A DNA stretch of 64,000 nucleotides, taken from assembly GCF_021049245.1 (NCBI RefSeq), contig NZ_CP088020.1, positions 3,044,001 through 3,108,000 of the forward strand, in the 5' to 3' direction. Position 1 is the first letter of the stretch. Each line of letters starts with the position of its first letter. Positions 3,401-44,534 of this stretch are shown here, piece after piece. The stretch comes from Radiobacillus kanasensis. Lineage in GTDB: Bacteria > Bacillota > Bacilli > Bacillales > Amphibacillaceae. A model generated the notes under the pieces. It was not told where the DNA came from. It saw nothing but the letters and a program-made list of their open reading frames with translations, and ran no database searches. Position numbers and translations under genes: made by a program.

Positions 3401-3431
3401 AAAGATGATTCCCTTAATTGAGGTGAAAAGG

Positions 3432-29488: not shown

Positions 29489-29517
29489 AAAAGGAGTGGA
29501 TTATTTCCACCCCTTTT
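29489..29517 (-). terminator. Terminator of the amino-sugar importer operon
   Basis: AAAAGGAGTGGA (29489-29500) pairs with TCCACCCCTTTT (29506-29517), one mismatch, 5-nt loop. The right arm touches the lactonase stop codon. Confidence 0.8.
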
Positions 29518-30575
29518 CAACGCCCTTTAACCGGCATAACTTTTAAACAAACAGGTCTATGAACAGAATAGACCTGTTCTGTCGCTCTAGGTATGCCCTC
29601 TTCATCTATTTTCATCACAACAATGGAATCTGAATGCTCATTAGCTACAAGTAAGTACTCAGCGTTCGGGACAATCGCAAAGTTACGCGGCCATTCCCCC
29701 ATTGTAGGAGTTTGCTGTAAACTGCTTAATCTCCCATCCCCAAGAATCTTATAGGTTGCGATACTATGATGTCCACGATTAGAAGCATATAAATAGGAAC
29801 CTGTTGGGGAGAGGTGGATATCTGCACCGTAATTGTCTTCTTTAAAGTCATCCGGAATTGTCTCTATCTGCTGAACTAGTTCTAGCGTCTCGATTGCATC
29901 ATCATAGGAATAAACCGAGATGCTAGAGTTAAATTCGTTCACAACATAAATGTTCTGTAGTTCTGGATGGATCGCAAAGTGTCTTGGACCAGAACCTGTC
30001 ACTGCCGCAACCTCCACAACTAATTCGAGAGTTGATGTATCGCGATTAAATTGATACAAATAAAGACCATCGAATCCTAAATCTGTGACTAAGAACTTGT
30101 TTGTATTCGGAATGGGCGCAATGGAATGAGGATGCGATAGCTTTTCCTTTTCATTCTCAGCATTATAGCTTTTTCGATCTGCTATGGGAAATAAGACTCC
30201 ATCCTCACTCAAAGCATGTGCGACAACACTTCCTCCGCCGTAATTTGCAGTAAATAACCACTGCTCACCCTTATCCAAACTAACAAAACAAGGTGAGGAT
30301 CCATCGGTAGATTGGCGATTTATTTCCGTCAGAGTAGCCTCCTTAATGTCCACGTCATAACATACAACTTCGCCATTATCCACCTCACTGACAGCGTAAA
30401 GACGATTCTGCCCATGATTGACGGCAAGAAACGACGGGCTTGCGATGCCTGACGTTGAAGTAACCTTCTTTAAGCTACCATTTTTTGAATCAAATAAAAG
30501 GAGTTGAATGGCATCTTCTCCCTCGCCCCCATAAGTTCCAACAAAAACATGGTAATATCTTTGGTTTATGGTCAT
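29517..30575 (-). CDS. Lactonase family protein (6-phosphogluconolactonase-like seven-bladed propeller)
   Basis: About 352 residues with repeated blade motifs: YHVFVGTYGGEGEDAIQLLL, PSFLAVNHGQNRLYAVSE, SLDKGEQWLFTANYGGGSV, GSGPRHFAIHPELQNIYVVNE, GADIHLSPTGSYLYASNRGHHSI, WPRNFAIVPNAEYLLVANE. This is the YbhE/Pgl-type fold, which hydrolyses sugar lactones. ATG 30575 is used (GGGGAGGG upstream); the in-frame extension to 30701 overlaps the GH20 fragment and has no site. The gene follows GH20 by 28 bases and ends the importer operon. In this context its substrate may be an N-acetylglucosamine-type 1,5-lactone rather than 6-phosphogluconolactone (inference). Confidence 0.85.
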   Translation of the reverse strand: MTINQRYYHVFVGTYGGEGEDAIQLLLFDSKNGSLKKVTSTSGIASPSFLAVNHGQNRLYAVSEVDNGEVVCYDVDIKEATLTEINRQSTDGSSPCFVSLDKGEQWLFTANYGGGSVVAHALSEDGVLFPIADRKSYNAENEKEKLSHPHSIAPIPNTNKFLVTDLGFDGLYLYQFNRDTSTLELVVEVAAVTGSGPRHFAIHPELQNIYVVNEFNSSISVYSYDDAIETLELVQQIETIPDDFKEDNYGADIHLSPTGSYLYASNRGHHSIATYKILGDGRLSSLQQTPTMGEWPRNFAIVPNAEYLLVANEHSDSIVVMKIDEEGIPRATEQVYSVHRPVCLKVMPVKGR

Positions 30576-30603
30576 GCTAAGCTTTATCCCTCCCCAAAAC
30601 CAA

Positions 30604-31101
30604 CTAATAGATAGGTAATACGTGAAAGAACACATTTGGTGATGCAATCCGGTAGTAATAGCTACACCATCCCAAGCCTGTTGAGTTTTCAACACCTTCA
30701 TTAAAGTACAACCGCTCTTCTTCTAATTCTTCTATGCTCTCTACTCGTCCCTCTATATAATCATTCAATCTATAGATAGCTGTATCTAATCGGGTTAATA
30801 AACCTCCATATCGAATATCGATCACTTCCCAGCCGAACGGTTTATGCATATGGAGCCACTGCTTCCGATGTGCTTTACGCAAATCTTCAACCCTTTTTAT
30901 AATGGTTGGAATTTCCTTATTTTTGATGCTTTTAAGCACTTCCTTGTTTTCCTTATCATAAGCTTCCTTTAATTTCAGACCTATTTCCGATTTTATACTT
31001 AATACCGCGGACAGCTTTTCTGGCACTTCCAAAATATAATCAAGGGAACGGTCGGAGTTTCTAATCCTTTTAATTTTAGACTCTCTCCGAGTAATGCCCA
31101 T
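30604..31101 (-). pseudogene. C-terminal fragment of the GH20 gene, separated by a frameshift
   Basis: 165-residue frame. From about residue 8 on (SKIKRIRNSDRSLDYI..., ending WCSYYYRIASPNVFFHVLPIY) it reads as the helical C-terminal part that GcnA-like GH20 enzymes carry after their barrel, bringing the total to a family-typical ~620 residues. Its ATG at 31101 is fortuitous: no ribosome binding site precedes it and it lies inside the N-terminal frame. The two frames join at GGAGAGAG near 31075-31085. Restoring one GA dinucleotide would fuse them as ...HYSERESKIKR..., so slippage in a GA run (a 2-bp loss) is the simplest explanation. Confidence 0.75.
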
Positions 31102-32509
31102 GTAAATCTAAGCCTTCAATATGTTTATCAAATAAGCCGATTAACACATCTTGCCACAATAAAAATTTGGATGGATTGGTTTGAACCATATTGCCAGGTT
31201 CAACCCCTGGGGTCTCATCCAATTCATTTAATAAAAGGAATGTCTCTTCCGCCATTCCTGTACAAAACTTCACTCGCTCACGTAACTTTTCTTTATCTAA
31301 CTCCTTAGAATAAGCATGCTCCGCATACATTTGTAACCCTAAAAGTGCGGTAAAAAAATTATTTTCATAGCCATCGTCTCCCCATAAGGTTACAAAGACA
31401 TCTTGGATTCCTTCTTTTTTACATGCATTTAAAGCGGCATCACTTGTTCTGAGCGATAGACCATAATTCGTTGCGAACGTATTCCAAACCCAAATCCCGC
31501 CCGCAAATGCTGGTACCTTCCCAAACGTTTTATGCTTCTGAATCATCTTGTGATAATCCTCTTCATCCGTATGGAAATAATCCCAATACATGAGTTGTAC
31601 GTCTTTTGGAGTATTTTCAACAATATGTTCCGGTATTTCGGTCGACATATTATAGTGATCATCACCGCTTTCAGAGGCTAATTTAATAAACATATCACTC
31701 CACATCATCGGTTCAAGTCCACGCGCTTTCACAATGTCAAGGACGCGCTTTAGATGAGTAGTCATCAGCTCTAAGCGACTTTTATAACCAAATTTATTTT
31801 GATAAATACCTCGTCCAAGCTCTTCTGCCTCATCCATCCCGATATGGATACGCTTACTCCTAAAGGGATCTGTTACGGATGTAATCATATTTTCAATAAA
31901 GTCATATGTGTCTTCACTTTCTAAGAGTAAAGCTCCTCTAGTATCCTTTAGATGGGAGGCATTACTCCATTTTAAAAACTCCTCTAAATGAGCAAGTGTT
32001 TGAATACATGGAATCAGTTCAATCCCAAATGCATCTGCATAGTCGTCTAACGATTTTAATTCATCATGTGTGTATCTTCCTCGCATGTAGCCGAAGTAAG
32101 GTTCATCCTTAATCTGATAAGTATCCTCCATATAAAGCATCGCGGAATTAAAACCCATTAATGCTAGCGTGCGGATCATTTCTTGAAATCTATCAATCTT
32201 CATCACTGCGTTTCTCGATAAGTCAAACATGGGCCCAACGGTAGAAAATTGCGGCTCTTCTTTTATAAAAAAGGGTTCCTGCTTTTCAAAATACTCGATA
32301 AACAGCCCGAACCCTCTAAAAAAATGTATTCTGTCTTCATAAGCAATTTGTCCCCTACCATTTTCGTATGAAACCTGCACACCGACTCCGTCTTGTTGCT
32401 CTACTTTCACAGACAAACCATCTTCAGACAAGGCAAAATCTAAATTTTCCTGCAATGCTTCTATGCCTGGTAAAAGGGAGGAATACTCCCCTTCAAGTTT
32501 TATTTTCAT
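31076..32509 (-). CDS. GH20 beta-N-acetylhexosaminidase, catalytic part of a frameshifted gene
   Basis: 477 residues, no signal peptide, hence cytoplasmic. Residues ~1-85 are the GH20 N-terminal alpha/beta domain; ~88-440 are the TIM barrel with FSTVGPMFDLSRNAVMK, IELIPCIQTLAHLEEFLKWS and the catalytic Asp-Glu pair in RIHIGMDEAEELG (D226, E227). It is of the short GcnA-like type, which removes terminal N-acetylhexosamine from imported oligosaccharides. The frame stops early after DLHGHYSERV; the missing C-terminus continues in another frame (30604-31078). RBS AAGGTGGGAG before ATG 32509. The catalytic residues are intact, so residual activity is possible, but the truncation may destabilise the protein. 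Confidence 0.85.
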   Translation of the reverse strand: MKIKLEGEYSSLLPGIEALQENLDFALSEDGLSVKVEQQDGVGVQVSYENGRGQIAYEDRIHFFRGFGLFIEYFEKQEPFFIKEEPQFSTVGPMFDLSRNAVMKIDRFQEMIRTLALMGFNSAMLYMEDTYQIKDEPYFGYMRGRYTHDELKSLDDYADAFGIELIPCIQTLAHLEEFLKWSNASHLKDTRGALLLESEDTYDFIENMITSVTDPFRSKRIHIGMDEAEELGRGIYQNKFGYKSRLELMTTHLKRVLDIVKARGLEPMMWSDMFIKLASESGDDHYNMSTEIPEHIVENTPKDVQLMYWDYFHTDEEDYHKMIQKHKTFGKVPAFAGGIWVWNTFATNYGLSLRTSDAALNACKKEGIQDVFVTLWGDDGYENNFFTALLGLQMYAEHAYSKELDKEKLRERVKFCTGMAEETFLLLNELDETPGVEPGNMVQTNPSKFLLWQDVLIGLFDKHIEGLDLHGHYSERV

Positions 32510-32531
32510 GTTCTCCCACCTTTTAGAGGTT

Positions 32532-32684
32532 GTTAAAAAAGTCCGGTAAAAAGGACACGGCGATTTTCTTCGTTAGCTTGCTTTTCCGGTGCTCACGTAT
32601 TAACTGCATACGCTCCGCTCCTCAAAGCTGCGCTGCCTCGAACTTCTTGGTCCTTTTCATCCTCCTTTTTCACGCACTTTTAAC
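32532..32684. repeat. About 150-bp palindromic intergenic repeat (MITE-like)
   Basis: The ends are inverted (GTTAAAAAAGT at 32532 and ACTTTTAAC at 32676-32684), and inside AAAAAGGAC (32550-32556 region) pairs with GTCCTTTT near 32650-32657. The core (CTTCGTTAGCTTGC, TACGCTCCGCTCCTCAAAG, CTGCGCTGCCTCGAAC) is of a kind I recall as a dispersed intergenic repeat in Bacillaceae genomes. It lies between the second permease stop and the GH20 start. Confidence 0.6.
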
Positions 32685-32711
32685 GGAATGTAATAGATTT
32701 TATAAAGTCTA

Positions 32712-33596
32712 TCAGCCTTTAACAGATCCGGACGTTGCACCTTTTTCGAATGTTTTTTGTGCGAACAGATAGACAATAATGACCGGTATAACAGTCATGG
32801 CAATTGCCGCTGTCATTAACCCATAGTCTGTACCATACTGGGAACTAACATTGGATAATAGCACAACAATTGGCGCCACTTTTTCATGGGATACAAGGAC
32901 AAGTGACGAAAATAAGTCATTATAAGACCACAAGAAAACGAACGTCCCAACCGTAGCAAAAGAAGGCAAGGAGATTGGTAAAAATATTTTCGTGTACATC
33001 TTAAGACGACTGCATCCATCCATAAAGGCCGCTTCCTCTAGTTCTTTCGGAATCGTTGCCATATAACTACTAATCACTAGAATAGCGAATGGTAGATTTC
33101 CTGCTGTTTGAGGAATAATAAGTGCCCAATACGTATTGACGAGATCCATATTAATCATCATTCTGTACACGGGGACAATCGTAGCAAATGCTGGAATGAG
33201 TAAACTTGCTACAAGAAGAGTTTGCAAGACACCTCTGAATCGAAAATTCATTCTGGACATGATAAATGCTGCAAAACCTCCGAAAAACAAAACGAGAAAC
33301 ACGGTTGAGCCAGACATGATGAAACTATTCATATAGCTTTGACCAATATTTACGGTTTCGAAGGCGTTTATATAATTTTGTAAGGTTGGATTGGTCGGAA
33401 ACTTAAATGTATCCGTAATGATATCCCGAGACTCTTTAAATGAATTCAGTAGAACCCAAGCCAATGGAAATATTGTCGTCATGGACCATGCTGTTAAACA
33501 AATGTATATAAATAGCTTTCCGTATTTTGATTTTGTAAAATACCTGTTTTGAAACTTCTCCAAATAAGTAAGTTGGTTCTTGTTACTTTTCGTCAA
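32712..33596 (-). CDS. Amino-sugar oligomer ABC transporter permease (MalG type)
   Basis: 294 residues, TTG start preceded by AGGTGGTG. Six helices, EAA loop PKELEEAAFMDGCSRLKMYTKIFLPISLP, and C-terminus AQKTFEKGATSGSVKG. It forms the importer with the permease at 33620 and the lipoprotein at 34575. The operon carries a NagR-type operator, so chito-oligosaccharide-like cargo is likely (inference). Confidence 0.9.
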   Translation of the reverse strand: MTKSNKNQLTYLEKFQNRYFTKSKYGKLFIYICLTAWSMTTIFPLAWVLLNSFKESRDIITDTFKFPTNPTLQNYINAFETVNIGQSYMNSFIMSGSTVFLVLFFGGFAAFIMSRMNFRFRGVLQTLLVASLLIPAFATIVPVYRMMINMDLVNTYWALIIPQTAGNLPFAILVISSYMATIPKELEEAAFMDGCSRLKMYTKIFLPISLPSFATVGTFVFLWSYNDLFSSLVLVSHEKVAPIVVLLSNVSSQYGTDYGLMTAAIAMTVIPVIIVYLFAQKTFEKGATSGSVKG

Positions 33597-33619
33597 ATCG
33601 TGTCACCACCTTTTTTATC

Positions 33620-34483
33620 CTAATAGGTTATTCCATCGCTCTTTAATAGCTTGTTCGTGATAAACGCTAGCGTAAGCCCTATTACTACCATGAGGACAGC
33701 TAAAGTCGCTCCATAGCCAATTGCTGAATCTTCAAAGGCTTTTTGGTACATATACGTCCCTAAAACCTCTGAAGACCGTGCTGGTCCACCACCTGTAATA
33801 ATATAAACAAGCTCAAAGATTTTCAGGGAACCCGTAATAGCAAGGACTAGACACGTTTTCATATCACTGACTATTAAGGGGAGTGTCAGTTTCGTCATTC
33901 TTTGGAAGCCCGTAATCCCCTCGAGCTTTGCTGCTTCGTAATAGTCGTTAGGAATCTTTCCAATGGCGGTTAACAGAATGACAAAGTAAAATCCGACATA
34001 GTTCCAAACCGTTGGAATCGCCACCATGTAAAGGGATGACTGCTCGGTTAGCCACAAGATACGCTCAAACCCTAAACTGACTAATATTTCATTTAACAAT
34101 CCATTTCTATGATTATAAATAAGGGTGAATAGTAGACCGATAGCAGCACCTGAAATAACAATTGGAAAGAAAAAGGTTGTACGGTAAAAGGCCGCTCCAT
34201 GCTTGATGGAATCAACCATAATAGCTAAGACCAAAGCAATACCGACTTGGAATATAGCTACATACAGCATTAGTTCTAAGGAATTTAACGTGGATCCAAT
34301 CGCAACTTCATCCTGAAAGAGTCGAATATAGTTTCCAAAACCGATGAAAGTTGAATTGAAAAATCCATCCGTTTTATAAAAGCTTTGTACGACATTTTCA
34401 AAGAATGGGTAGTATAAGAACACCCCAGATATTAAAAATGCTGGTGTTAAGAAAAGGAATATATATTTTTTATCACCTTTCAT
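33620..34483 (-). CDS. Amino-sugar oligomer ABC transporter permease (MalF type)
   Basis: About 287 residues. The start is ATG 34483 because AAAGGAG lies six bases upstream; the in-frame TTG at 34501 would overlap that site. EAA loop: PNDYYEAAKLEGITGFQRMTKLTLPLIVS. VYIITGGGPARSSEVLGTYMYQKAF is the usual MalF-side signature. Confidence 0.9.
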   Translation of the reverse strand: MKGDKKYIFLFLTPAFLISGVFLYYPFFENVVQSFYKTDGFFNSTFIGFGNYIRLFQDEVAIGSTLNSLELMLYVAIFQVGIALVLAIMVDSIKHGAAFYRTTFFFPIVISGAAIGLLFTLIYNHRNGLLNEILVSLGFERILWLTEQSSLYMVAIPTVWNYVGFYFVILLTAIGKIPNDYYEAAKLEGITGFQRMTKLTLPLIVSDMKTCLVLAITGSLKIFELVYIITGGGPARSSEVLGTYMYQKAFEDSAIGYGATLAVLMVVIGLTLAFITNKLLKSDGITY

Positions 34484-34510
34484 AAGAAGCTCCTTTTTCA
34501 AAAATAATGG

Positions 34511-34549
34511 AAAGTGCTTCGCCGCAGGTTAACGCGGCAAAGCAACTTT
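34511..34549 (-). other. Intercistronic stem-loop between binding protein and first permease
   Basis: AAAGTGCTTCGCCGC (34511-34525) pairs with GCGGCAAAGCAACTTT (34534-34549) with one bulge and one mismatch. The strong stem has no T-run on the minus strand, so mRNA stabilisation or partial attenuation is more likely than full termination. Confidence 0.65.
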
Positions 34550-34574
34550 TAAATTCATATACTACTTGTTTCTA

Positions 34575-35855
34575 TTATTCTAGTGCTGCAGCTTCTTCCA
34601 GAACCTGTGCACCGGTCTTTTCACCAGCAACAACAGAAGGTACACTTTCTCGAATTAATGTAAATGCTTCAGGTAAGATACGGTCGTTGATTGGGGAAGC
34701 AACCGAACTTGCATTTTTCACCATGTCATGACCAGTAGCAATATAATCAGGTATATCTGTTAACTCACCCTTTGCTGGAATTTGACCAGTAGCAGCAGCA
34801 ATGTCGATAATAGTTTCTTCAGATGTTAGGAAGTTGAACAGATCTACTACAGCTTTTTGTTTCTTTTCATCTTCATAAGCCTTTGTACTAATAAACCATC
34901 CAGATGAAGCACCACCTACAACATCTCCCGTTTGTCCACCGTCACCATAAACAGGTACTGGAACTACGGAAATATCTTCTGCAATGCCTGATTCTTCAAT
35001 TTGTCCCCAGAACCAAGAGCCTTCATAAATCATAGCGGCTTGTTCTTGTAAGAAAATACTTTGTGCCATCGCAAGATCAATCGTTGCAGCATCCTCAGGG
35101 AAAGCGCCCATTTCAGCATGCTTCGCGATGTTATCGATTCCTTCCGCCCATGCAGGATTTTGGTCTGCTAGTTTAGCTGTGTAATTTTCATTTCCACCGG
35201 CAGCTAATGCATAATGCTCGACTACATAATAGGAATCAATTGTAGAAGCAGCTACAGGAATAATATCTGTTTTGGCAAATTCCTTAATTGCTGTTTCATA
35301 TTCCTCCCAAGTTGTAGGAACCTTTATCCCGTGTTCTTCAAATAGCTTCTTGTTTACAAACAACCCTTCATAGAAACCAGTTTGTGGTGCTGCGTATAAA
35401 TTCCCATCTTCATTTCTTTGTTGTTCTAGCATGGAGTTGTACCCAGAAAGATCAACACCCTCCGCTTCTTCAAGGTTAACGACTAAGCCTTCATCAATAA
35501 TTCCTTGTACATCCACCGTGTTAAAGAAAAACATTAGGTCTGGCTCATTGTCTGAACTGAAATCCGTGTTTACCTTTGTTCGAATAGTACCAGCATCTGC
35601 TGATTGCGAGTCGTTCACAATGGAAACGTTCTCATTTTCTTCCTGGAATTGTTCTAGTTTTTTCTCAAACACCTCTCCAGCAGGATCTGTACCCGCCATC
35701 GTCGTCACAACACGAAGTTCGACTTCTTCTTTCCCTTTTTCTCCACTCTCTTCCCCGTTGGCCTCTGACCCACTATCCGTTCCATTACAAGCTGCAAGGA
35801 ACAAAATAGAAAGACTCATCAGCAACAACAGAGCACCAAAACTTTTCTTCTTCAT
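34575..35855 (-). CDS. Substrate-binding lipoprotein of the amino-sugar importer (CUT1)
   Basis: 426 residues with lipobox SILFLAACNG and a low-complexity acidic linker (SGSEANGEESGEKGKEEVE). The family fold is visible in LRVVTTMAGTDPAGEVFEKKLEQF, NEDGNLYAAPQTGFYEGLFVNKKLFEEHG and IFLQEQAAMIYEGSWFWGQIEE. It is the first gene of the operon binding protein-permease-permease-GH20-lactonase. It is transcribed from a promoter overlapped by a NagR-type operator, so induction by N-acetylglucosamine metabolites is probable. Confidence 0.92.
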   Translation of the reverse strand: MKKKSFGALLLLMSLSILFLAACNGTDSGSEANGEESGEKGKEEVELRVVTTMAGTDPAGEVFEKKLEQFQEENENVSIVNDSQSADAGTIRTKVNTDFSSDNEPDLMFFFNTVDVQGIIDEGLVVNLEEAEGVDLSGYNSMLEQQRNEDGNLYAAPQTGFYEGLFVNKKLFEEHGIKVPTTWEEYETAIKEFAKTDIIPVAASTIDSYYVVEHYALAAGGNENYTAKLADQNPAWAEGIDNIAKHAEMGAFPEDAATIDLAMAQSIFLQEQAAMIYEGSWFWGQIEESGIAEDISVVPVPVYGDGGQTGDVVGGASSGWFISTKAYEDEKKQKAVVDLFNFLTSEETIIDIAAATGQIPAKGELTDIPDYIATGHDMVKNASSVASPINDRILPEAFTLIRESVPSVVAGEKTGAQVLEEAAALE

Positions 35856-35881
35856 TTAATTTCCCCCTTAAAATTTTTATT

Positions 35882-35891
35882 TGTTATAACA
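35882..35891. promoter_or_regulatory. TGTTATAACA palindrome in the leader of the importer operon
   Basis: A perfect 10-bp palindrome, 27-36 bases upstream of the binding-protein start and 4 bases from the dre site. It shares the TTATAA core of the palindromes at 36105 and 36262. Confidence 0.4.
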
Positions 35892-35894
35892 TCT

Positions 35895-35910
35895 AGTTGT
35901 CTATACCAAT
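35895..35910 (-). promoter_or_regulatory. NagR (dre)-type operator on the importer promoter
   Basis: Read on the minus strand the site is ATTGGTATAGACAACT, identical to the Bacillus NagR/YvoA dre sequence as I recall it. It begins at the last two bases of the -10 box and covers the expected transcription start, a classic repressor position. Confidence 0.8.
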
Positions 35911-35936
35911 ACTAACTAATAAATCAAAAAAGTCAA
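35909..35936 (-). promoter_or_regulatory. Promoter of the amino-sugar importer operon
   Basis: On the minus strand TTGACT (35936-35931), a 16-bp spacer and TAGTAT (35914-35909) form a sigma-A-like promoter. Confidence 0.6.
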
Positions 35937-36104
35937 TTATTTTTTCTGGTTTTTTTACTATGTCTCTTATGGAATGACTATCATTAAGCGGAAATCTTAG
36001 ATGTGAATTGGATGTTTAGAAAGGATGTACACCTCTACAGCGGCAACATATGAACTACTTATGAATGTTGATTCTATGGGGATTTTAAATTCTCAACCTT
36101 TTAT

Positions 36105-36122
36105 ACATTATAATGTTATAAC
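36105..36122. promoter_or_regulatory. Upstream copy of the TTATAA-type operator
   Basis: ACATTATAATGTTATAAC repeats the first 17 bases of the 36262 palindrome. The spacing between the two is 157 bases, which would permit looping. Confidence 0.45.
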
Positions 36123-36261
36123 AACATAATACAATATTAATAACGATTTGTTAAGACAAATTTAAAAACAAATTATTTTAAATGAGGAATAATGCCCCGT
36201 TCTTAATTTTAAATTCCTATAAAAACAGCATATTTCAACTCAAAAATGTAATTGTTTATAA

Positions 36262-36281
36262 ACATTATAATGTTATAATGT
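36262..36281. promoter_or_regulatory. Candidate operator of the sugar-acid operon
   Basis: Nine-base perfect inverted arms ACATTATAA and TTATAATGT are separated by TG, 72 bases before the first gene of the plus-strand operon. Likely ligand: the GntR-family protein encoded at its end (inference). Confidence 0.6.
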
Positions 36282-36352
36282 AAAGAATAGGGTGGAAATT
36301 CTAGTTTAATAAGCAAAGAAAGACCATAAATCAATGAAAAAGAGGGAGAAAA

Positions 36353-37453
36353 GTGAGTGATTGTTATGTATTGCGTAATTTGAGTTTTATTTCTAACCAA
36401 AAAATAGACATCATGATTGAAGCCGGAAAAATAGCTGCAATAACTAGTGTGGGGGAGAAAAAAAGGCATCACGTTGTTGATTGTTCAGGTAAATACGTAT
36501 CAAGTGGTTGGATAGACTTACACGTCCATGCGTTTCCCGAATTCACTCCATACGGCGATGAATTAGACGAAATAGGCGTGAAGCAAGGAGTGACAACTGT
36601 AGTTGACGCTGGTAGTTGTGGTGCTGATAGAATGGCAGACTTAATTAAGAGTACTCAGCACAGTAAAACAAACCTCTTTGCTTTTTTAAATATTTCACAA
36701 ATTGGGTTAGAGCGTATTGATGAATTATCAAATATGAGTTGGGTCAGCGAAGAAAAAATACAGAAGACAGTGGATCAATATAAGGATATTATAGTTGGGT
36801 TAAAAGCTAGAATAAGCAGTAGTGTGGTTAAGAATAACGGTGTCAAACCATTGAGGATTGCTAAAGAAATTTCTAATAATCTGTCCTTACCTATAATGGT
36901 TCATATTGGTTCTGGGCCACCAAATATACGGGATATCGTCCCTTTGATGCAGGAACACGATATATTAACTCATTACTTACATGCAAAATCTAATAATCTA
37001 TTTGATTCAGATGGTATGCCGCTTCAAGTGTTAACGGATGCAATTGAACGAGGAATTCATCTGGATGTTGGCCATGGAACGTCTAGCTTCTCCTTTAAAG
37101 TTGCCGAAATAGCAAAGGATTTTGGTATAAAATTTAACACCATTAGCACAGACATTTATCGTTATAATCGCCTGAATGGACCCGTATATAGCTTGGCACA
37201 CGTACTTTCTAAATTTCTTTATCTTGGTTATCCACTAGAAGAAGTGATTGCTGCAGCGACTGTAAATGCGGCAAAATGGCTGAATAGACCAGAATTAGGC
37301 CGTATTAAGATAGGAGATCCTGCTAATCTAACTTTGTTTACCGTCGACGATCAGCCCGTGACATTGATAGATTCCGAGGGCGATAAACGGATCGCAAATA
37401 GAAGGATTCAGACAAAGGGAGTTGTTGTAAATGGCGAATTCATGGAATGCTAA
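36353..37453 (+). CDS. Amidohydrolase/deacetylase family protein (EF_0837-like), candidate N-acetyl-amino-sugar-acid deacetylase
   Basis: 366 residues, GTG start with AGGGAG upstream. It has a metallo-dependent TIM-barrel: SGWIDLHVHAFPEF (HxH metal ligands), GVTTVVDAGSCGADRM, GLKARISSSVV (candidate metal-bridging Lys), LPIMVHIGSGPPN and DVGHGTSSFSF. The closing NRPELGRIKIGDPANLTLFTVDD is typical of the dihydroorotase/D-aminoacylase superfamily. Relatives sit beside DgaE/DgaF genes in enterococci and other bacteria. It overlaps the ammonia-lyase gene by 23 bases. The inferred role is to remove the acetyl group from N-acetylglucosaminate before deamination. Confidence 0.82.
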   Translation: MSDCYVLRNLSFISNQKIDIMIEAGKIAAITSVGEKKRHHVVDCSGKYVSSGWIDLHVHAFPEFTPYGDELDEIGVKQGVTTVVDAGSCGADRMADLIKSTQHSKTNLFAFLNISQIGLERIDELSNMSWVSEEKIQKTVDQYKDIIVGLKARISSSVVKNNGVKPLRIAKEISNNLSLPIMVHIGSGPPNIRDIVPLMQEHDILTHYLHAKSNNLFDSDGMPLQVLTDAIERGIHLDVGHGTSSFSFKVAEIAKDFGIKFNTISTDIYRYNRLNGPVYSLAHVLSKFLYLGYPLEEVIAAATVNAAKWLNRPELGRIKIGDPANLTLFTVDDQPVTLIDSEGDKRIANRRIQTKGVVVNGEFMEC

Positions 37454-38540
37454 ATATGGATTGAAACGAGTGATTAATGCGAGTGGGAGAATGAGTATTC
37501 TTGGAGTATCCACTCCATCAGATTCGGTAATGAATGCTATGAAATATGGAGGGCAGCATTATGTAGAAATGGCTGATTTAGTCGACAAAGGTGGGGAGTA
37601 TGTCGCAAGTATTCTAGGCTCGGAAGCAGCTGTAATTGTTAATTCCGCATCTAGCGGGATAGCCCTTTCTGTTGCAGCGCTTATAACAAAAGGAAATCGT
37701 CGTTTAAGTGAACGTCTACACCAGGAAGAGATTACCCCAAACGATGTTATCATTCTTAAGGGACATAACGTTCAATACGGGGCACCTATCGAAACGATGG
37801 TTTATTTAGGCGGTGGTAGATTAGTGGAAGTCGGATATGCAAATGAAGGAAAAGTCGAGCATATAGAAGAATCTATTACTAACAATACGACCGCAATCCT
37901 TTATGTTCAATCTCACCATGCGGTACAGAAAAATATGATCTCCGTTGAGGAAGCGTGGGAGATTGCACAACGGAACAATATTCCATTTATCGTCGATGCC
38001 GCAGCAGAAGAATACCTTCAAAAATATGTGAGCTTCTCGGATCTTGTAATATATAGCGGGTCAAAAGCTATTGAAGGGCCAACCTCAGGTATTGTTGGTG
38101 GGAAACGCAAATACATAGATTGGGTGAAGCAGCAGTTCTACGGAATTGGTAGAAGCATGAAAGTTGGAAAAGAAGTAAGCTTCGGTTTACTGCAAGCTTT
38201 AGAAGAATTCGAGACAAGAGAAACCAATTCCGAACAACAAAAGGATTGTTTACACCTCCTAACTCCACTTAATGAACTTGATGGCGTTCAAGTAAAGATC
38301 GTTCAAGACGATGCCGGAAGAGACATTTACCGCGCGCGGATCCAAATAGATTCTGATAATGCAAACATGACCGCTAAAGAGGTTGTGACCTCATTGCAAG
38401 AGGGGGAAATTGCTATTTACACGCGTGATTATGGGGTAAAGCAAGGATTTTTCGATATTGATCCCCGTCCACTCCAAGGGGATGACCTAAACATTATTGT
38501 TTCCCAATTACGTAGTTTATTAGGAGGTAAGGAAGGATGA
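37431..38540 (+). CDS. dgaE: DgaE-family PLP-dependent ammonia-lyase (D-glucosaminate type)
   Basis: A 369-residue SelA-like fold-type I PLP enzyme. Signatures: YGLKRVINASGRMSILG at the N-terminus, VIVNSASSGIALSVAALI (phosphate-binding region), NNIPFIVDAAAE (D189 at the pyridine nitrogen) and DLVIYSGSKAIEGPTSGIV, with the Schiff-base Lys at K212. DgaE converts D-glucosaminate-6-phosphate to 2-keto-3-deoxy-6-phosphogluconate. Here no PTS is present but a KDG kinase is, so the unphosphorylated acid is the more likely substrate (inference). GGGAG lies 9 bases before ATG 37431. Confidence 0.85.
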   Translation: MANSWNAKYGLKRVINASGRMSILGVSTPSDSVMNAMKYGGQHYVEMADLVDKGGEYVASILGSEAAVIVNSASSGIALSVAALITKGNRRLSERLHQEEITPNDVIILKGHNVQYGAPIETMVYLGGGRLVEVGYANEGKVEHIEESITNNTTAILYVQSHHAVQKNMISVEEAWEIAQRNNIPFIVDAAAEEYLQKYVSFSDLVIYSGSKAIEGPTSGIVGGKRKYIDWVKQQFYGIGRSMKVGKEVSFGLLQALEEFETRETNSEQQKDCLHLLTPLNELDGVQVKIVQDDAGRDIYRARIQIDSDNANMTAKEVVTSLQEGEIAIYTRDYGVKQGFFDIDPRPLQGDDLNIIVSQLRSLLGGKEG

Positions 38541-39295
38541 ATCAGATGGCTAAACGGCTTTACAAAGGACGTGTCGCTTTAAATGTTTTAGCAAACTCTA
38601 TTCAAAATGCGAAAGAAGTATTTGAAGCAGCTGAAGGGTATGTACTAGTAGGGGTTTTATCAAAAAATTATCGCACTGTTGAGGAAGCGGTTCTTGCAAT
38701 GAAGGAATACGGTAAAGAAATAGATGACGCAGTTTCTATTGGCCTTGGTTCCGGTGATAGTCGGCAGGCTTCCGTAGTAGCAGAAATTGCTGCGCATTAT
38801 GCCGGGACTCATATAAACCAAGTTTTCCCTTCCGTAGGTGCAACACGTGCTAACTTAGGTGAAAAGGAAAGCTGGATCAATAGTTTAGTCTCTCCTACCG
38901 GGAAAGTAGGATATGTCAATATATCGACAGGAGCAATTAGCAGTTCCACAAGAGAAACGGCAGTTGTACATGTTAAAGCAGCAATCTCTCTAGTTCGTGA
39001 TATGGGTGGAAATGCCTTAAAATATTTTCCGATGAATGGATTAGAATGCGAAAATGAGTTTCGTGCGGTAGCACAGGCATGTGGAGAAGAGCAATTCGCA
39101 TTGGAGCCAACAGGTGGCATAGACCTAGAAAACTTTGAAGCGATTTTACAGATTGGAATCGATGCTAATGTTCCGATCATGATCCCTCATGTGTACTCCT
39201 CGATCATCAATAAACAGACAGGTGAAACAAACATAGAAGATGTGCGTTCTTTACTCCAAATCATGAAAAGGTTGGTGGATAATGTTGAGGAATAG
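38537..39295 (+). CDS. dgaF: DgaF-family 2-keto-3-deoxy-6-phosphogluconate aldolase
   Basis: 252 residues of the DgaF aldolase family, which is larger than ordinary Eda. Seen: YVLVGVLSKNYRTVEEAV, DDAVSIGLGSGDSRQASVV, HINQVFPSVGATRANLG, GNALKYFPMNGLE (candidate Schiff-base Lys) and FALEPTGGIDLENFEAIL. It splits KDPG into pyruvate and glyceraldehyde 3-phosphate. ATG 38537 overlaps the dgaE stop (ATGA), with AGGAGG 9 bases upstream, so the two are coupled. Confidence 0.87.
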   Translation: MNQMAKRLYKGRVALNVLANSIQNAKEVFEAAEGYVLVGVLSKNYRTVEEAVLAMKEYGKEIDDAVSIGLGSGDSRQASVVAEIAAHYAGTHINQVFPSVGATRANLGEKESWINSLVSPTGKVGYVNISTGAISSSTRETAVVHVKAAISLVRDMGGNALKYFPMNGLECENEFRAVAQACGEEQFALEPTGGIDLENFEAILQIGIDANVPIMIPHVYSSIINKQTGETNIEDVRSLLQIMKRLVDNVEE

Positions 39296-40301
39296 TTTTG
39301 CAGCTTTCGGAGAGGTAATGATGCGATTACAAGTACCTGGATATAAATTGTTATCTCAATCTAATCGCTTAAACTATAGTTTTTCTGGTACCGGCGTAAA
39401 CGTTGCAGCCGCATTGGCACAACTAGGACATACTAGCTACATAGTATCTACACTACCGAACAACGCTATTGGTGACTCTGCAATAAGCTCCCTTCGCAAG
39501 CTCGGAATCGACACTACCTTTATTAATCTTGAAGGAGATTATATAGGCATGTACTTTCTAGAAAATGGCTTCGGACCTAGACCAAGTCTTGTTACTTATT
39601 CTAATAGACGAGAGAGTAGTTTTAATACAGCCACATACGAAAAATACGACTTTCATGAAGTCACGAAAGCTAGCGATGTTGTTCATTTTTGCGGGATCAC
39701 ACTTGCGATGAATGAGACAGTACGCGAACAAATGAAAACCTTCGCCAAGTTAGCCAAAGAAAACGGTTGTACTATCGTTTTTGATTGTAATTATCGCCCG
39801 TCGCTTTGGGGTGTAGACGGCCATCAAAAGGCAAAGGAACATTATGAAGAAATGTTATATCTTGCTGACATTGTAATGATGAATGAAAAGGATGCTCAAT
39901 ATACGCTTGGTATGGTTTCAGAAGAAAAAGAGCGAAAAGGACAACTTTTAGATCTTATTCCTAAAGTAGCCGAAACATATAACATCTCAATCATAGCCGG
40001 AACCCACCGTTCTATAAATACGGATGATACCCACACTTTACAAGGCTTTTTATTTAAGGATGATACTTTTTCATTTTCCAAAACATTATCCTTTAGATCC
40101 CTAGATAGAATCGGTTCAGGTGATGCTTTTACAAGTGGGATACTACATGGAGAGTGGAAAAAACTCCCTGATCAAGAAACAGTTGATTTTGCTACACATG
40201 CAAGTATGCTTGCCCATACAATAGTTGGGGACACTCCTCTATCTTCTGAAATGGATATCGTAAATGTCATGACAAAGGGTATAATGGATGTAGAAAGGTA
40301 G
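39282..40301 (+). CDS. PfkB-family kinase, probable 2-keto-3-deoxygluconate kinase
   Basis: 339 residues with ribokinase-fold motifs: FAAFGEVMMRLQVPG, FSGTGVNVAAALAQLGHTSY, IVFDCNYRPSLW and the C-terminal anion-hole signature DRIGSGDAFTSGILHG. CNYRPSLW and the N-terminal GEVMMRL are typical of KDG kinases. It overlaps dgaF by 14 bases. It would phosphorylate 2-keto-3-deoxygluconate made by the DgaE-like enzyme to give the aldolase substrate. Its presence is the main argument that the pathway runs on unphosphorylated acids. Confidence 0.85.
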   Translation: MLRNSFAAFGEVMMRLQVPGYKLLSQSNRLNYSFSGTGVNVAAALAQLGHTSYIVSTLPNNAIGDSAISSLRKLGIDTTFINLEGDYIGMYFLENGFGPRPSLVTYSNRRESSFNTATYEKYDFHEVTKASDVVHFCGITLAMNETVREQMKTFAKLAKENGCTIVFDCNYRPSLWGVDGHQKAKEHYEEMLYLADIVMMNEKDAQYTLGMVSEEKERKGQLLDLIPKVAETYNISIIAGTHRSINTDDTHTLQGFLFKDDTFSFSKTLSFRSLDRIGSGDAFTSGILHGEWKKLPDQETVDFATHASMLAHTIVGDTPLSSEMDIVNVMTKGIMDVER

Positions 40302-40310
40302 GGATTCATT

Positions 40311-41027
40311 TTGGCAATAACTCGAAAGAAAGGCCCGTTATACACACAAATTAAAAATATATTGAAGGATAGAATTTTACATGGTGTCTATCCTATTCAT
40401 TCTAATATACCTTCCGAACCACAACTTGAAGAAGAGTTCGGAGTGAGTAAAATAACGGTACGAAAAGCCGTAGAGGAATTAGTACAAGAAGGACTACTAG
40501 AGAAAAAAAGTGGAAAGGGCACAAAGGTGATTCAAAATACTTCCGCATCAAGAATCTCTCGCGGTAAATTTTTCACAGAATTCTTAGTGGAAAAAGGGCA
40601 TCAAATCAATAAGAAACTGTTGGAAATAAAGCAAGTACAAACAAAAGAGGACCCGCATTTACAACCATTATTTGACGAAAGTTGCCTATGTATTAGACGT
40701 GTATATAACCTTGACGGTACTCCTTATATCCATTTCACTCATTATCTTTCCAATCAATTAGGAACAATTGATAGTCATGATATTCAAGAGCAATCGTTAT
40801 ATGGCTTAATCGAAAAACGAGATATATTCCTTGAAAAGTTTGAGGATTACTTTAATATAGCCACTGCAACCCCAGTTATAGCTAAAGAATTACAAGTAGA
40901 CACTGGGACACCTCTACTTAAGCGGATGCGATACTCCTATGACGAGATGAATAATCTCATTGAATACAGTGAGGGGTACTATAATACGGAACTTCATGAT
41001 TACGTGAAGACGGAAGTACAGAAATAA
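40311..41027 (+). CDS. GntR-family (HutC/UTRA) transcriptional regulator
   Basis: 238 residues, TTG start. The winged HTH is PLYTQIKNILKDRILHG then IPSEPQLEEEFGVSKITVRKAVEELVQEGLLEKKSGKGTKV; the UTRA effector domain runs from ~80 to 235 (FFTEFLVEKGHQINKKLLEI, RRVYNLDGTPYIHFTHYL, YSEGYYNTELHDY). It is the last gene of the sugar-acid operon and probably its repressor, acting at the TTATAA-type palindromes. It differs clearly from the NagR sequence I know, so the dre site may be read by a NagR encoded elsewhere. Confidence 0.88.
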   Translation: MAITRKKGPLYTQIKNILKDRILHGVYPIHSNIPSEPQLEEEFGVSKITVRKAVEELVQEGLLEKKSGKGTKVIQNTSASRISRGKFFTEFLVEKGHQINKKLLEIKQVQTKEDPHLQPLFDESCLCIRRVYNLDGTPYIHFTHYLSNQLGTIDSHDIQEQSLYGLIEKRDIFLEKFEDYFNIATATPVIAKELQVDTGTPLLKRMRYSYDEMNNLIEYSEGYYNTELHDYVKTEVQK

Positions 41028-41309: not shown

Positions 41310-42674
41310 CTAATCTAGTATTGCTCCATTATTTCTCAGTACAGATTGAAGTGTAGAAATAGGCAATTCTCTAGGTTCAACATTTTCCTTTACCGACAAA
41401 GCAGCAGCCGTTCCAGCCGCCTCACCCAGAGCTAAACATATCGCCTGAACCCTAAAGGAACCTAGTGCTTCATGTGTAGCGGAAATACATCTCCCAGCTA
41501 GCAATAGATTATTCAGTCCAACCGGTAATAAACTTCTATAAGGAATATCATAATGTGTCCCAGGAGGAAGCTTATAGATTTGCGTTTTATCCGAATCTGG
41601 GGAATGAATGTCTATCATATAACAAGATTGGGCTATGACATCATCAAACTGCCTTTCTTGTACGATATCATCCTGATTGATTACATAATCGCCCATAATC
41701 CTTCTCGTTTCCCTAATACCAAGTTGCGGTGCAGTAGAAACAATTTGAGCATTTTCAAATCCAGGTACGAATTTTTTCAAAAACGCTATCCCATCCACTA
41801 CTTGTTCCCTGCCTATAATTTCAGCTTCTGTTAGTTCTTTTGGATCTAATGCACTTTTCCCTTGGATGCGAACAAAGTTGACTCCCACTACATCATTCAG
41901 CCAGGGAATCGTGAAGATAGAGGCAACATGGTCACGATTAACTTTCGTTAAGTACCCTTCTTTTTTCGCTTGAACAATTTCCTCATGAAAACCTGTTGCA
42001 TTTAAATAATTTCGTCCATCGGCTGTTTTCCAATACCCACGTTTTCCCTTTTTATTTAACGCCTCTCCAACCTCCCGTACATGAACATTTCCTAGCATAT
42101 ACATAAGGGATGAAGGTTGGGTCCCCCCATCTTTTTCACGACCTACTTTATAAGAAGCACCCGCTCGTGCCGCTAAGTCTCCATCACCCGTGGCGTCCAC
42201 AAATCGATTCGCTTTAATAGCTTCTCTTCCAGCCTTACTCTCGACGATAATCGCCTGAATATCTCCGTTTTCTGTAATCGCATCTGTAATCGTAGTGTGA
42301 CACAAAATTTCCACACCCGCTTCGGTGAGTAATTCAAATGCCAACATTTTGTATAGTTCCGGATTAAAAGGCTCCCATCCCTTTCGTTCCGTCATGATTA
42401 GTCCATCGCGTTCATATAACTTTTGGCGTATTTCCTTAAAAATCCCACCAATAATAAATCTTTTTTTATCGTGATACCCATAGGCAAAAGAGGTAACCAT
42501 ACCCGCTGTACCCATTCCTCCTAAAAAGGAATGATGTTCAATTAATATCGTTTTAGCTCCATTACGAGCAGCGCTTAAAGCAGCACCTATTCCAGCAGGT
42601 CCACCTCCACATACTACGACATCAACCTCGGCTCGTATTTCTAATTGTTTTGCAGATTCTGTTATTTGACTCAA
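41310..42674 (-). CDS. FAD-dependent oxidoreductase (FAD_oxidored family)
   Basis: 454 residues, TTG start with AGGAG 7 bases upstream. The dinucleotide fold VDVVVCGGGPAGIGAALSAARNGAKTILIEHHSFLGGMGTAG is near the N-terminus; ANRFVDATGDGDLAARAGA and the C-terminal GLNNLLLAGRCISATHEALGSFRVQAICLALGEAAGTAAAL are typical of the family found beside sugar ABC importers. The substrate is unknown; sugar or sugar-acid dehydrogenation is plausible from context. It is the last gene of the fourth importer operon, 15 bases after the permease stop. Confidence 0.85.
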   Translation of the reverse strand: MSQITESAKQLEIRAEVDVVVCGGGPAGIGAALSAARNGAKTILIEHHSFLGGMGTAGMVTSFAYGYHDKKRFIIGGIFKEIRQKLYERDGLIMTERKGWEPFNPELYKMLAFELLTEAGVEILCHTTITDAITENGDIQAIIVESKAGREAIKANRFVDATGDGDLAARAGASYKVGREKDGGTQPSSLMYMLGNVHVREVGEALNKKGKRGYWKTADGRNYLNATGFHEEIVQAKKEGYLTKVNRDHVASIFTIPWLNDVVGVNFVRIQGKSALDPKELTEAEIIGREQVVDGIAFLKKFVPGFENAQIVSTAPQLGIRETRRIMGDYVINQDDIVQERQFDDVIAQSCYMIDIHSPDSDKTQIYKLPPGTHYDIPYRSLLPVGLNNLLLAGRCISATHEALGSFRVQAICLALGEAAGTAAALSVKENVEPRELPISTLQSVLRNNGAILD

Positions 42675-42689
42675 TGGAAAGCTCCTCTC

Positions 42690-44454: not shown

Positions 44455-44499
44455 TTTCCCACCTCTTTTGACATTTAATAAACCGATCCGGTAATGTTT

Positions 44500-44525
44500 C
44501 ACCCTACCTTAGAAAAGGTAGGGTG
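44500..44525. other. Intercistronic stem-loop, fourth importer
   Basis: An 11-bp perfect stem CACCCTACCTT/AAGGTAGGGTG with an AGAA loop, between the binding-protein stop (44535) and the first permease. A T-run is present only on the plus-strand side, so on the operon strand it is more likely an mRNA stabiliser or processing barrier. Confidence 0.7.
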
Positions 44526-44534
44526 ATGATTTTT

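What the first reader, a model, noticed from the sequence alone, without database searches (positions are those of the whole stretch)
29517..41027. Candidate complete pathway for oxidised N-acetylglucosamine oligomers (aldonic acids/lactones)
Seen: two divergent operons share one regulatory region. One encodes an ABC importer, a cytoplasmic GH20 and a sugar lactonase. The other encodes an amidohydrolase of the DgaE/DgaF-associated type, a DgaE-like ammonia-lyase, a 2-keto-3-deoxygluconate (KDG) kinase, a DgaF-like KDPG aldolase and a GntR regulator. Known: DgaE/DgaF act on glucosaminate-6-P after PTS import, and a chitin-oxidation route via N-acetylglucosaminate, glucosaminate and KDG has been described in marine Gram-negative bacteria (from memory). 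Inferred order here: import of chito-oligosaccharide aldonic acids or lactones, GH20 trimming, lactone opening, deacetylation, deamination to KDG, phosphorylation, aldol cleavage. The combination of lactonase, GH20 and a dedicated ABC importer, with KDG kinase in place of a PTS, would be a distinct Gram-positive version.
Basis: partly seen in the sequence, partly recalled or inferred. Interest (0 to 1): 0.85.

Follow-up and report, generated by a model that had tools for sequence, protein, structure and literature searches.

The report
Bacterial operon for eating oxidised chitin
A pair of divergent operons in a Gram-positive bacterium looks like a dedicated route for importing and eating the oxidised chitin fragments that copper enzymes (LPMOs) make, built from different enzymes than the pathway described in marine Gram-negative bacteria.

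Summary
The gene set is real and, in its relatives, tied to chitin-oxidising LPMOs. The amidohydrolase–DgaE–DgaF–kinase core recurs in 105 of 118 related loci. Among 159 family genomes, 22 of 23 with an AA10 LPMO carry DgaE and 21 of 23 carry the same special lactonase class, which sits beside GH20C in 26 of 29 genomes. The operator of the locus's GntR regulator, learned from amidohydrolase promoters, also stands upstream of the importer (16 sites), of GH20–lactonase far from the core (6) and of the LPMO gene (3 of 23 LPMO genomes strongly, 2 weakly).

Three corrections. The window's GH20 is frameshifted, with a repeat-like element upstream. This genome has no AA10 LPMO, and its three GH18 proteins look like LysM peptidoglycan enzymes, so it could only scavenge. 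The order deamination→KDG→phosphorylation is not established; conserved phosphate-pocket arginines favour phosphorylation first. Every substrate is inferred. I found no Gram-positive version in the literature searches made.

The parts
29517..30575 (-). Lactonase, 7-bladed beta-propeller; paralogue class distinct from the ordinary 6-phosphogluconolactonase; expected to open C1-lactones of oxidised chito-oligomers
   Evidence: PF10282 311 bits; the special class scores up to 311 bits against 388 or more for the ordinary one, and lies beside GH20C in 26 of 29 genomes
30604..31101 (-). C-terminal part of the GH20C gene, in another frame
   Evidence: PF18088 positions 56-187; 73% identical over 162 aa to the C-terminus of the closest intact homologue P0122
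31076..32509 (-). Catalytic part of the GH20C exo-beta-N-acetylglucosaminidase (GcnA/GH20C type, no signal peptide seen by eye), ends by frameshift
   Evidence: PF00728 and PF18088 positions 2-54; best PDB sequence matches 2epk and 5a69; 79% identical to P0122, 635 aa
32525..32670 (.). About 146-bp repeat-like element between permease 2 and GH20
   Evidence: 75-77% matches in another locus of the own genome (L004) and in L180; only loci on hand were searched
32712..33596 (-). ABC importer permease 2
   Evidence: PF00528; 82% identical in L042
33620..34501 (-). ABC importer permease 1
   Evidence: 81% identical in L042; not scanned against Pfam
34575..35855 (-). Solute-binding lipoprotein of the importer
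   Evidence: PF13416/PF01547; best PDB sequence matches are the chitin-oligosaccharide binding proteins NagB1/NagB2 (7ehp, 7eho)
36105..36124 (.). Operator site 1 (weaker)
   Evidence: 16.7 bits with the operator matrix
36262..36281 (.). Operator site 2 (strong), just upstream of the amidohydrolase
   Evidence: 28.2 bits; the only match of ACATTATAAYGTTATAATGT at up to 2 mismatches in the whole genome
36353..37453 (+). Amidohydrolase EF_0837 family: proposed N-acetylglucosaminate deacetylase
   Evidence: TIGR03583 over cut-off; metal-ligand motifs HxH, K, H, H, D align with 2ics and 8wzy (motif roles recalled)
37431..38540 (+). DgaE-family PLP ammonia-lyase
   Evidence: TIGR01437 over cut-off, equivalog NF047797 not reached; 7lc0 best PDB match; His162/163, Lys212, Arg301/332/346 present
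38537..39295 (+). DgaF-type KDPG aldolase
   Evidence: NF047796 and PF07071 over cut-off; 3mux/3m6y
39282..40301 (+). PfkB-type sugar-acid kinase (glucosaminate kinase or KDG kinase)
   Evidence: PF00294; nearest PDB 3ktn, 2afb; the 32 relatives at 45-67% identity in the family all lie at dga loci, the other matches are 38% or less
40311..41027 (+). GntR/UTRA regulator of the locus
   Evidence: PF00392 + PF07702; an exact operator 12-mer stands near the amidohydrolase in 72 of 88 loci with a GntR gene of this cluster, in 8 of 27 without

Best explanation
The two divergent operons form one GntR-controlled regulon for using C1-oxidised chito-oligosaccharides, the products of chitin-active AA10 LPMOs. 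Steps: (1) import of short oxidised oligomers by the ABC importer (no ATPase gene here; a shared one is assumed); (2) GH20C removes GlcNAc from the non-reducing end, leaving N-acetylglucosaminate (GlcNAc1A) or its lactone; (3) the special lactonase opens the lactone; (4) the EF_0837-family amidohydrolase deacetylates GlcNAc1A to glucosaminate; (5) the kinase and the DgaE lyase convert glucosaminate to KDPG, more likely by phosphorylation first (glucosaminate-6-phosphate, as in the Dga pathway) than through KDG; (6) DgaF splits KDPG to pyruvate and glyceraldehyde-3-phosphate. Shown here: gene identity, conserved co-occurrence, adjacency, operator. Inferred: every substrate, the order within step 5, binding of GntR to the operator, and induction by an oxidised intermediate. 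The window's organism has no AA10 LPMO and would live on products made by others; its GH20 may be damaged.
For: Family assignments. The four-gene core is found in 105 of 118 loci (named and unnamed sets overlap). In 159 family genomes: LPMO in 23, 22 of them with DgaE (Fisher 6e-17) and 21 with the special lactonase (1e-17); within genus g25 7 of 7 LPMO genomes have DgaE against 8 of 28 overall (7e-6), g15 7 of 7 against 10 of 17 (0.006), g38 4 of 5 against 4 of 8 (0.07) (not corrected for kinship). In 398 class genomes 31 of 47 LPMO genomes have DgaE, 58 of 398 overall (8e-19). LPMO lies within 8.6 kb of DgaE or of the special lactonase in 12 of 23. Operator: 42 sites of 16 bits or more in 1.02 Mb, 41 within 350 bp upstream of importer SBP (16), AMI (16), GH20 (6) or LPMO (3); block-shuffled 0-1; GH20, SBP and LPMO sites were not in the training set. 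In 398 class genomes 25 of 43 sites lie within 6 kb upstream of DgaE. A linked LPMO (L052) carries chitin-binding CBM5/12 domains. SBP nearest to chitin-oligosaccharide binding proteins.
Against: Own genome lacks AA10 LPMO; its three GH18 proteins look like LysM peptidoglycan enzymes; the GH19 search found nothing but rang in no control either. GH20 is frameshifted. 27 of 118 loci have a GntP permease gene and none of these shows GH20 in the stretch held, so free sugar acids may be the commoner substrate. 16 of 47 class-level LPMO genomes and 1 of 23 family-level ones lack DgaE. Only 3 of 23 LPMO genomes have a strong operator at the LPMO gene; in the loci L051-L057, five of which have an adjacent LPMO, no operator was found near the amidohydrolase. 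No enzyme of this subset is known to me by assay to act on GlcNAc1A.
Confidence: 0.74

Rival explanations
1. The core catabolises free D-glucosaminate or N-acyl-glucosaminate of any origin; GH20, lactonase and importer are a secondary addition in some lineages, and chitin oxidation is only one source.
For: 27 of 118 loci carry a GntP-type permease gene near the core and none of these shows GH20 (4 also show ABC permease genes); DgaE/DgaF are known for glucosaminate use in Salmonella (PMC9529869, passages read).
Against: The operator-linked LPMO and GH20-lactonase genes and the LPMO-DgaE co-occurrence show a specific tie to oxidised oligomers in this family.
Confidence: 0.16
2. The locus processes glycans of another kind (for example N-glycan or chitobiose ends; a GH92 alpha-mannosidase gene lies at 23744-28861) and the sugar acid arises inside the cell through a dehydrogenase.
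For: GH92 lies next to the lactonase end; GH20C enzymes of streptococci act on host glycans (recalled).
Against: No sugar dehydrogenase in either operon and none among the recurrent neighbours that I identified (several neighbour families were not identified). No GH92 match in the 38 related stretches. The FAD oxidoreductase at 41310 is on the other strand, convergent with the dga operon.
Confidence: 0.05
3. Order variant: DgaE acts on unphosphorylated glucosaminate giving KDG, then the kinase makes KDPG, as the first reader and the ong pathway have it.
For: Kinase resembles KDG kinases; in Pseudoalteromonas the kinase acts on KDG (PMC9537276, passages read).
Against: Phosphate-pocket arginines of Salmonella DGL conserved in the window DgaE and in 37 of 40 others aligned. 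L050 has a DgaE nested among kinase-type DgaEs (SH-aLRT 97) in a kinase-less operon whose amidohydrolase belongs to another clade (97) (quick trees with long-branch warnings): DgaE seems exchangeable between operon types, the amidohydrolase not. But that operon type's SFCGS protein folds like RpiB, not like a PTS protein, so import is not shown to phosphorylate.
Confidence: 0.4
4. In this genome the route is decaying: GH20 is broken by a frameshift and a repeat lies in the operon, so only monomers or already trimmed acids are used.
For: Frameshift and the repeat-like element before GH20; no AA10 LPMO.
Against: The other genes have open frames with full-length family matches; the GH20 C-terminal part is still 73% identical to the nearest homologue over 162 aa without a stop, as expected for a recent change or an assembly error; one genome cannot tell which.
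Confidence: 0.3

Closest known systems
ong oxidative chitin utilisation pathway of Pseudoalteromonas prydzensis ACAM 620 (PMC9537276)
   Same: Same logic: GH20 frees GlcNAc1A, deacetylation, deamination, PfkB kinase, KDPG; LPMO upstream; dedicated repressor
   Different: There OngB is a D-aminoacylase-like subtype V enzyme and OngC a putative D-amino-acid deaminase, GH20 is predicted periplasmic, the importer is SSS, and the word lactonase does not occur in the main text. Here: EF_0837 amidohydrolase, SelA-like DgaE, GH20 without visible signal peptide, ABC importer, lactonase, own KDPG aldolase, GntR
Dga pathway for D-glucosaminate of Salmonella (DgaABCDEF; PMC9529869)
   Same: DgaE-family ammonia-lyase and DgaF aldolase; conserved His162/163 and arginine cluster
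   Different: PTS import there; here ABC importer plus a kinase, an amidohydrolase, GH20 and lactonase; DgaE scores 401 against the equivalog cut-off 600
EF_0830-EF_0839 / AHA_3911-3917 gene set named by NCBI models TIGR03577, 03579, 03580, 03581, 03583
   Same: Amidohydrolase, DgaE-like and aldolase genes side by side
   Different: Loci of that type seen here (L050, L058, L059, L069) have the SFCGS/DUF4310/DUF4311 genes and no kinase, GH20 or lactonase match; E. faecalis and Aeromonas themselves were not looked at

Membership tests
ong oxidative chitin pathway | OngB-type D-aminoacylase-like deacetylase | tested here: not met
   Window amidohydrolase is TIGR03583; D-aminoacylase-type PDB chains match only residues 16-92 or so, E 3e-6 or worse
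ong oxidative chitin pathway | OngC-type D-amino-acid deaminase | tested here: not met
   The lyase of the locus is the SelA-related DgaE family; no other lyase in the operons. OngC itself was not aligned
ong oxidative chitin pathway | LPMO in the same genome | tested here: not met
   PF03067: 0 matches in G000; met in 22 of 35 DgaE genomes of the family
ong oxidative chitin pathway | Growth on GlcNAc1A through these genes | not testable with these tools
   Needs mutants and substrate
Dga (glucosaminate) pathway | DgaE family | tested here: met
   TIGR01437 536 bits, cut-off 385
[quoted passage not shown]
   NF047797 401 bits, cut-off 600
Dga (glucosaminate) pathway | DgaF aldolase | tested here: met
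   NF047796 374 bits, cut-off 300
Dga (glucosaminate) pathway | PTS importer DgaABCD | tested here: not met
   No PTS gene in the two operons; ABC importer in its place
GH20C/GcnA beta-N-acetylglucosaminidase | Catalytic domain plus GH20C C-terminal domain in one open frame | tested here: not met
   Both domains present but in two frames
2-keto-3-deoxygluconate kinase | NCBIfam equivalog NF052444 | tested here: not met
   69.6 bits, cut-off 400; PfkB family membership is met
PTS-type import in the kinase-less (SFCGS) relatives | SFCGS protein with a PTS EIIB fold | tested here: inconclusive
   Predicted fold matches RpiB-type isomerases best; the other proteins of the system were not folded

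The most novel reading that the evidence does not exclude
Bacillota have an LPMO-coupled oxidised-chitin regulon, controlled by one GntR repressor through the operator ACATTATAACGTTATAATGT. It reaches KDPG through N-acetylglucosaminate, glucosaminate and glucosaminate-6-phosphate, with a dedicated glucosaminate kinase, and shares no deacetylase or deaminase with the Gram-negative ong pathway. LPMO-less members such as the window's organism are scavengers of other microbes' oxidised products.
Probability: 0.45. Interest if true: 0.82.

Novelty: new variant of a known kind. Interest (0 to 1): 0.72.

Why it matters
LPMOs of Gram-positive bacteria are studied as enzymes, but I found nothing on what these cells do with the oxidised ends (searches named under Tried and rejected). 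The regulon evidence names the candidate deacetylase, lyase, kinase, aldolase, lactonase, GH20, importer and regulator in named genera (for example Gracilibacillus, L122, L129, L141), so it can be tested directly. It would be a second, convergent solution to oxidised-chitin use, would give a role to a long-unnamed gene set (EF_0837-EF_0839), and would suggest that some bacteria scavenge LPMO products without making an LPMO.

Tried and rejected

Regulon elsewhere in this genome: four exact 12-mers, two in the window and two inside coding sequences of unrelated genes, so not counted as members. An intracellular dehydrogenase as source of the acid: none seen, but not all neighbour families in related loci were identified. 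The labels HK and RR in my scripts were guesses from size and were not tested. Programmed frameshift in GH20: considered and rejected, because relatives have one frame. Rfam (gathering threshold) and tRNA scans of the window gave nothing.

Literature searches: (long hit lists were shown in part: 20 of 3,221, 25 of 451). No listed paper joins DgaE/DgaF with LPMO or chitin, and none that I opened describes GlcNAc1A catabolism in a Gram-positive; most subscription papers are not held. Papers seen as passages only: PMC9537276 (plus its section 16), PMC12017989, PMC9529869, PMC11653859, PMC12343721, PMC13325158, PMC6962202 (the last irrelevant). The Aeromonas study PMC11653859 found only distant or no matches for OngB/OngC and could not confirm the route. 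PMC12343721 predicts, for haloarchaea, a route through a putative glucosaminate-6-phosphate lyase after an unknown kinase.

Rows dropped before counts: G019 and G154 (28-29% identical, below the family cut-off) were not counted as DgaE; the broken G142 copy was counted. L070 and L071 were left out of the operator counts. One search uses the 66 unnamed loci only, because the 80 named loci (best 80 of 567) partly repeat the same genomes; a few of the 66 overlap, and one site (L064/L163) is counted twice. Genus ranges assume that handle numbers run genus by genus; its genus-level p used 16 genera, while my count of true DgaE genera is 15. Four loci with the rest of the core show no DgaF match (L060, L067, L091, L104), not followed up.


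Full report
What is there. The window (39.5% GC, part of a 4.03-Mb genome) holds two divergent operons. Minus strand: solute-binding lipoprotein, two permeases, a GH20C beta-N-acetylglucosaminidase and a lactonase. Plus strand: an EF_0837-family amidohydrolase, a DgaE-family PLP ammonia-lyase, a DgaF-type KDPG aldolase, a PfkB kinase and a GntR/UTRA regulator. In the plus operon AMI/DgaE, DgaE/DgaF and DgaF/kinase overlap by 4-23 bp.

The GH20 gene. The first ORF ends at profile position 54 of the GH20C C-terminal domain and the second resumes at 56 in another frame. The second part is 73% identical over 162 aa to the closest intact homologue P0122, so the change is recent or an assembly error. 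In 159 family genomes there are 53 GH20C matches: 2 are the window's halves, 1 is a broken copy in G034, and 50 have open frames of 625-694 aa. The only wide gap inside the operon (202 bp) is in front of this gene; it holds a roughly 146-bp repeat-like element also seen in one other stretch of this genome and one of another, among the loci on hand.

Who else has it. TIGR01437 is found in 37 of 159 family genomes at E 1e-60 or better, 34 of them over the curated cut-off. I took 38 stretches around these genes and 80 named loci of other Bacillota (best 80 of 567; partly the same genomes). Amidohydrolase-DgaE-DgaF-kinase is complete in 105 of the 118 (30 of the 38 unnamed). What stands beside it varies: ABC importers, GntP permease (27 of 118), GH20 (13), the special lactonase (13), GH18 (8), GH3 (6) and an AA10 LPMO (10; seven of these confirmed by the PF03067 genome search, one by Pfam with CBM5/12). 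L042 holds the window's set in one direction: SBP 71%, permeases 81-82%, GH20 parts 61-64%, lactonase 40%, core and regulator 54-73% identical. L057 has GH18, the core, LPMO, lactonase and the end of GH20 within 19.5 kb.

Link to LPMOs. AA10 LPMO is found in 23 of 159 family genomes. 22 of these have DgaE (35 genomes have it), 21 have the special lactonase class (29 genomes; up to 311 bits against 388 or more for the ordinary one), and 21 have GH20C (40 genomes). The special lactonase match starts within 1.3 kb of a GH20C match in 26 of 29 genomes, and LPMO lies within 8.6 kb of DgaE or of the special lactonase in 12 of 23. The association holds inside genera g15 (p 0.006) and g25 (7e-6), less so in g38 (0.07), and in 398 genomes drawn from the class: 31 of 47 LPMO genomes have DgaE, 58 of 398 overall. 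These tests do not correct for shared ancestry. The window's genome has no AA10 LPMO. Its three GH18 matches all carry LysM repeats by my reading of the translations, one with further peptidoglycan-binding repeats, so I take none for a chitinase. A GH19 search found nothing, but rang in none of its controls.

The operator. Both operons share a region with two perfect copies of ACATTATAATGT, the only matches in 64 kb at up to one mismatch (0.27 expected). This 12-mer or a close variant stands near the amidohydrolase start in 72 of 88 loci with a GntR gene of this cluster and 8 of 27 without; of the nine copies found elsewhere in these 2.31 Mb, eight are upstream of the importer's binding-protein gene in loci where the amidohydrolase is inside a longer operon. 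A matrix from 84 amidohydrolase-promoter sites gives the consensus ACATTATAACGTTATAATGT; the window scores 28.2 and 16.7 bits. I then scanned 66 unnamed family loci (1.02 Mb), including places where GH20-lactonase or LPMO lie elsewhere in the genome. Of 42 sites at 16 bits or more, 41 are within 350 bp upstream of the importer SBP (16), the amidohydrolase (16), GH20 (6) or LPMO (3: L163, L177, L178); five block-shuffled copies gave 0, 1, 1, 0, 0. The six GH20 sites are all in loci where GH20-lactonase stands over 100 kb from the core or on another contig, and two of the three LPMO sites are on other contigs than the core. The GH20, SBP and LPMO sites were not used for training, so they are an independent check.

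Limits of the operator evidence. All 23 LPMO genomes had their LPMO region among the 66 loci. Three have a strong site at the LPMO gene, two a weak one of 13.1 bits (L175, L176), and the other 18 none at 16 bits. The loci L051-L057, five of them with an adjacent LPMO, have no operator beside the core and no GntR gene behind the kinase. In 398 class genomes, 25 of 43 sites at up to two mismatches are within 6 kb upstream of DgaE, in 22 genomes. In the window's own genome the 20-mer occurs once, at 36262. That the GntR protein binds it is inferred.

Mechanism. The parts fit import, trimming, lactone opening, deacetylation, conversion to KDPG and cleavage. The SBP is nearest in sequence to the chitin-oligosaccharide binding proteins NagB1/NagB2 among solved structures. 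The GH20 Asp-Glu pair aligns with GcnA (role recalled). The amidohydrolase keeps the metal-ligand motifs of 2ics and 8wzy (roles recalled). A lactonase makes sense because C1-oxidising LPMOs first give lactones (recalled).

Order of the last steps. In the Salmonella lyase, the substrate phosphate was docked by hand near Arg301, Arg332 and Arg346 (PMC9529869, passages read). All three are present in the window protein and in 37 of 40 other proteins aligned; the exceptions are the truncated L069 fragment (gaps) and the distant L070 and L071. In quick trees with long-branch warnings, the DgaE of the kinase-less operon L050 nests inside the kinase-type DgaEs, while its amidohydrolase stays with those of other kinase-less operons. 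Both favour a phosphorylated DgaE substrate. Against this, the docking is a model, the transporter of those operons is not shown to phosphorylate (its SFCGS protein folds like RpiB), and the kinase resembles KDG kinases. I put the two orders at about 60:40 in favour of phosphorylation first.

Comparison. The pathway works like the ong pathway of Pseudoalteromonas (PMC9537276, passages and section 16 read; OngB structure paper PMC12017989, passages read), but the deacetylase and deaminase belong to other families, so it is not a member of it. It shares DgaE/DgaF with the Salmonella Dga pathway, but the importer and phosphorylation differ and the strict equivalog cut-off for DgaE is not reached. 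I found no Gram-positive version in print in the searches named under Tried and rejected.

Noticed in passing
L118:16556-16930 (and L050, L058, L059, L069): The SFCGS/EF_0830 protein of unknown function, beside dga genes, is predicted to fold like ribose-5-phosphate isomerase B (RpiB), with an invariant FCGSGGAGA stretch in 39 aligned sequences.
   Followed up: partly
window 32525-32670: Roughly 146-bp repeat-like element between permease 2 and GH20; 75-77% copies in L004 (own genome) and L180; the 202-bp gap is predicted to fold back on itself (-43 to -50 kcal/mol, no shuffle control).
   Followed up: partly
window 4486-5715: IS110-family transposase gene lies between two permease genes of another ABC sugar importer (3405-4352 and 6098-6931), near GH43 and GH2 genes.
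   Followed up: no
window 41310-45809: FAD-dependent oxidoreductase (PF12831) followed by genes that look like an ABC sugar importer (by reading), function unknown; convergent with the dga operon.
   Followed up: no
window 23744-28861 and 48595-50994: Two large proteins with a FIMAH domain: a 1705-aa GH92 alpha-mannosidase and a 799-aa protein with no other Pfam match at 1e-5.
   Followed up: no
L069:8852-9927: DgaE gene of an SFCGS-type operon is broken (pieces in different frames, a stop) in G142.
   Followed up: no
L079:11106-11520: In an uncultured Metabacillus assembly the dgaF and kinase genes are each reduced to a piece and run together, with GntP downstream.
   Followed up: no
L060, L067, L091, L104: Core loci without a DgaF match although amidohydrolase, DgaE and kinase are present.
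   Followed up: no
NCBI model names TIGR03577-TIGR03581: The related gene set is named after Aeromonas hydrophila AHA_3911-3917 as well as E. faecalis; it could hold the deacetylase and deaminase that an Aeromonas chitin study (PMC11653859) did not find. Not tested.
   Followed up: no
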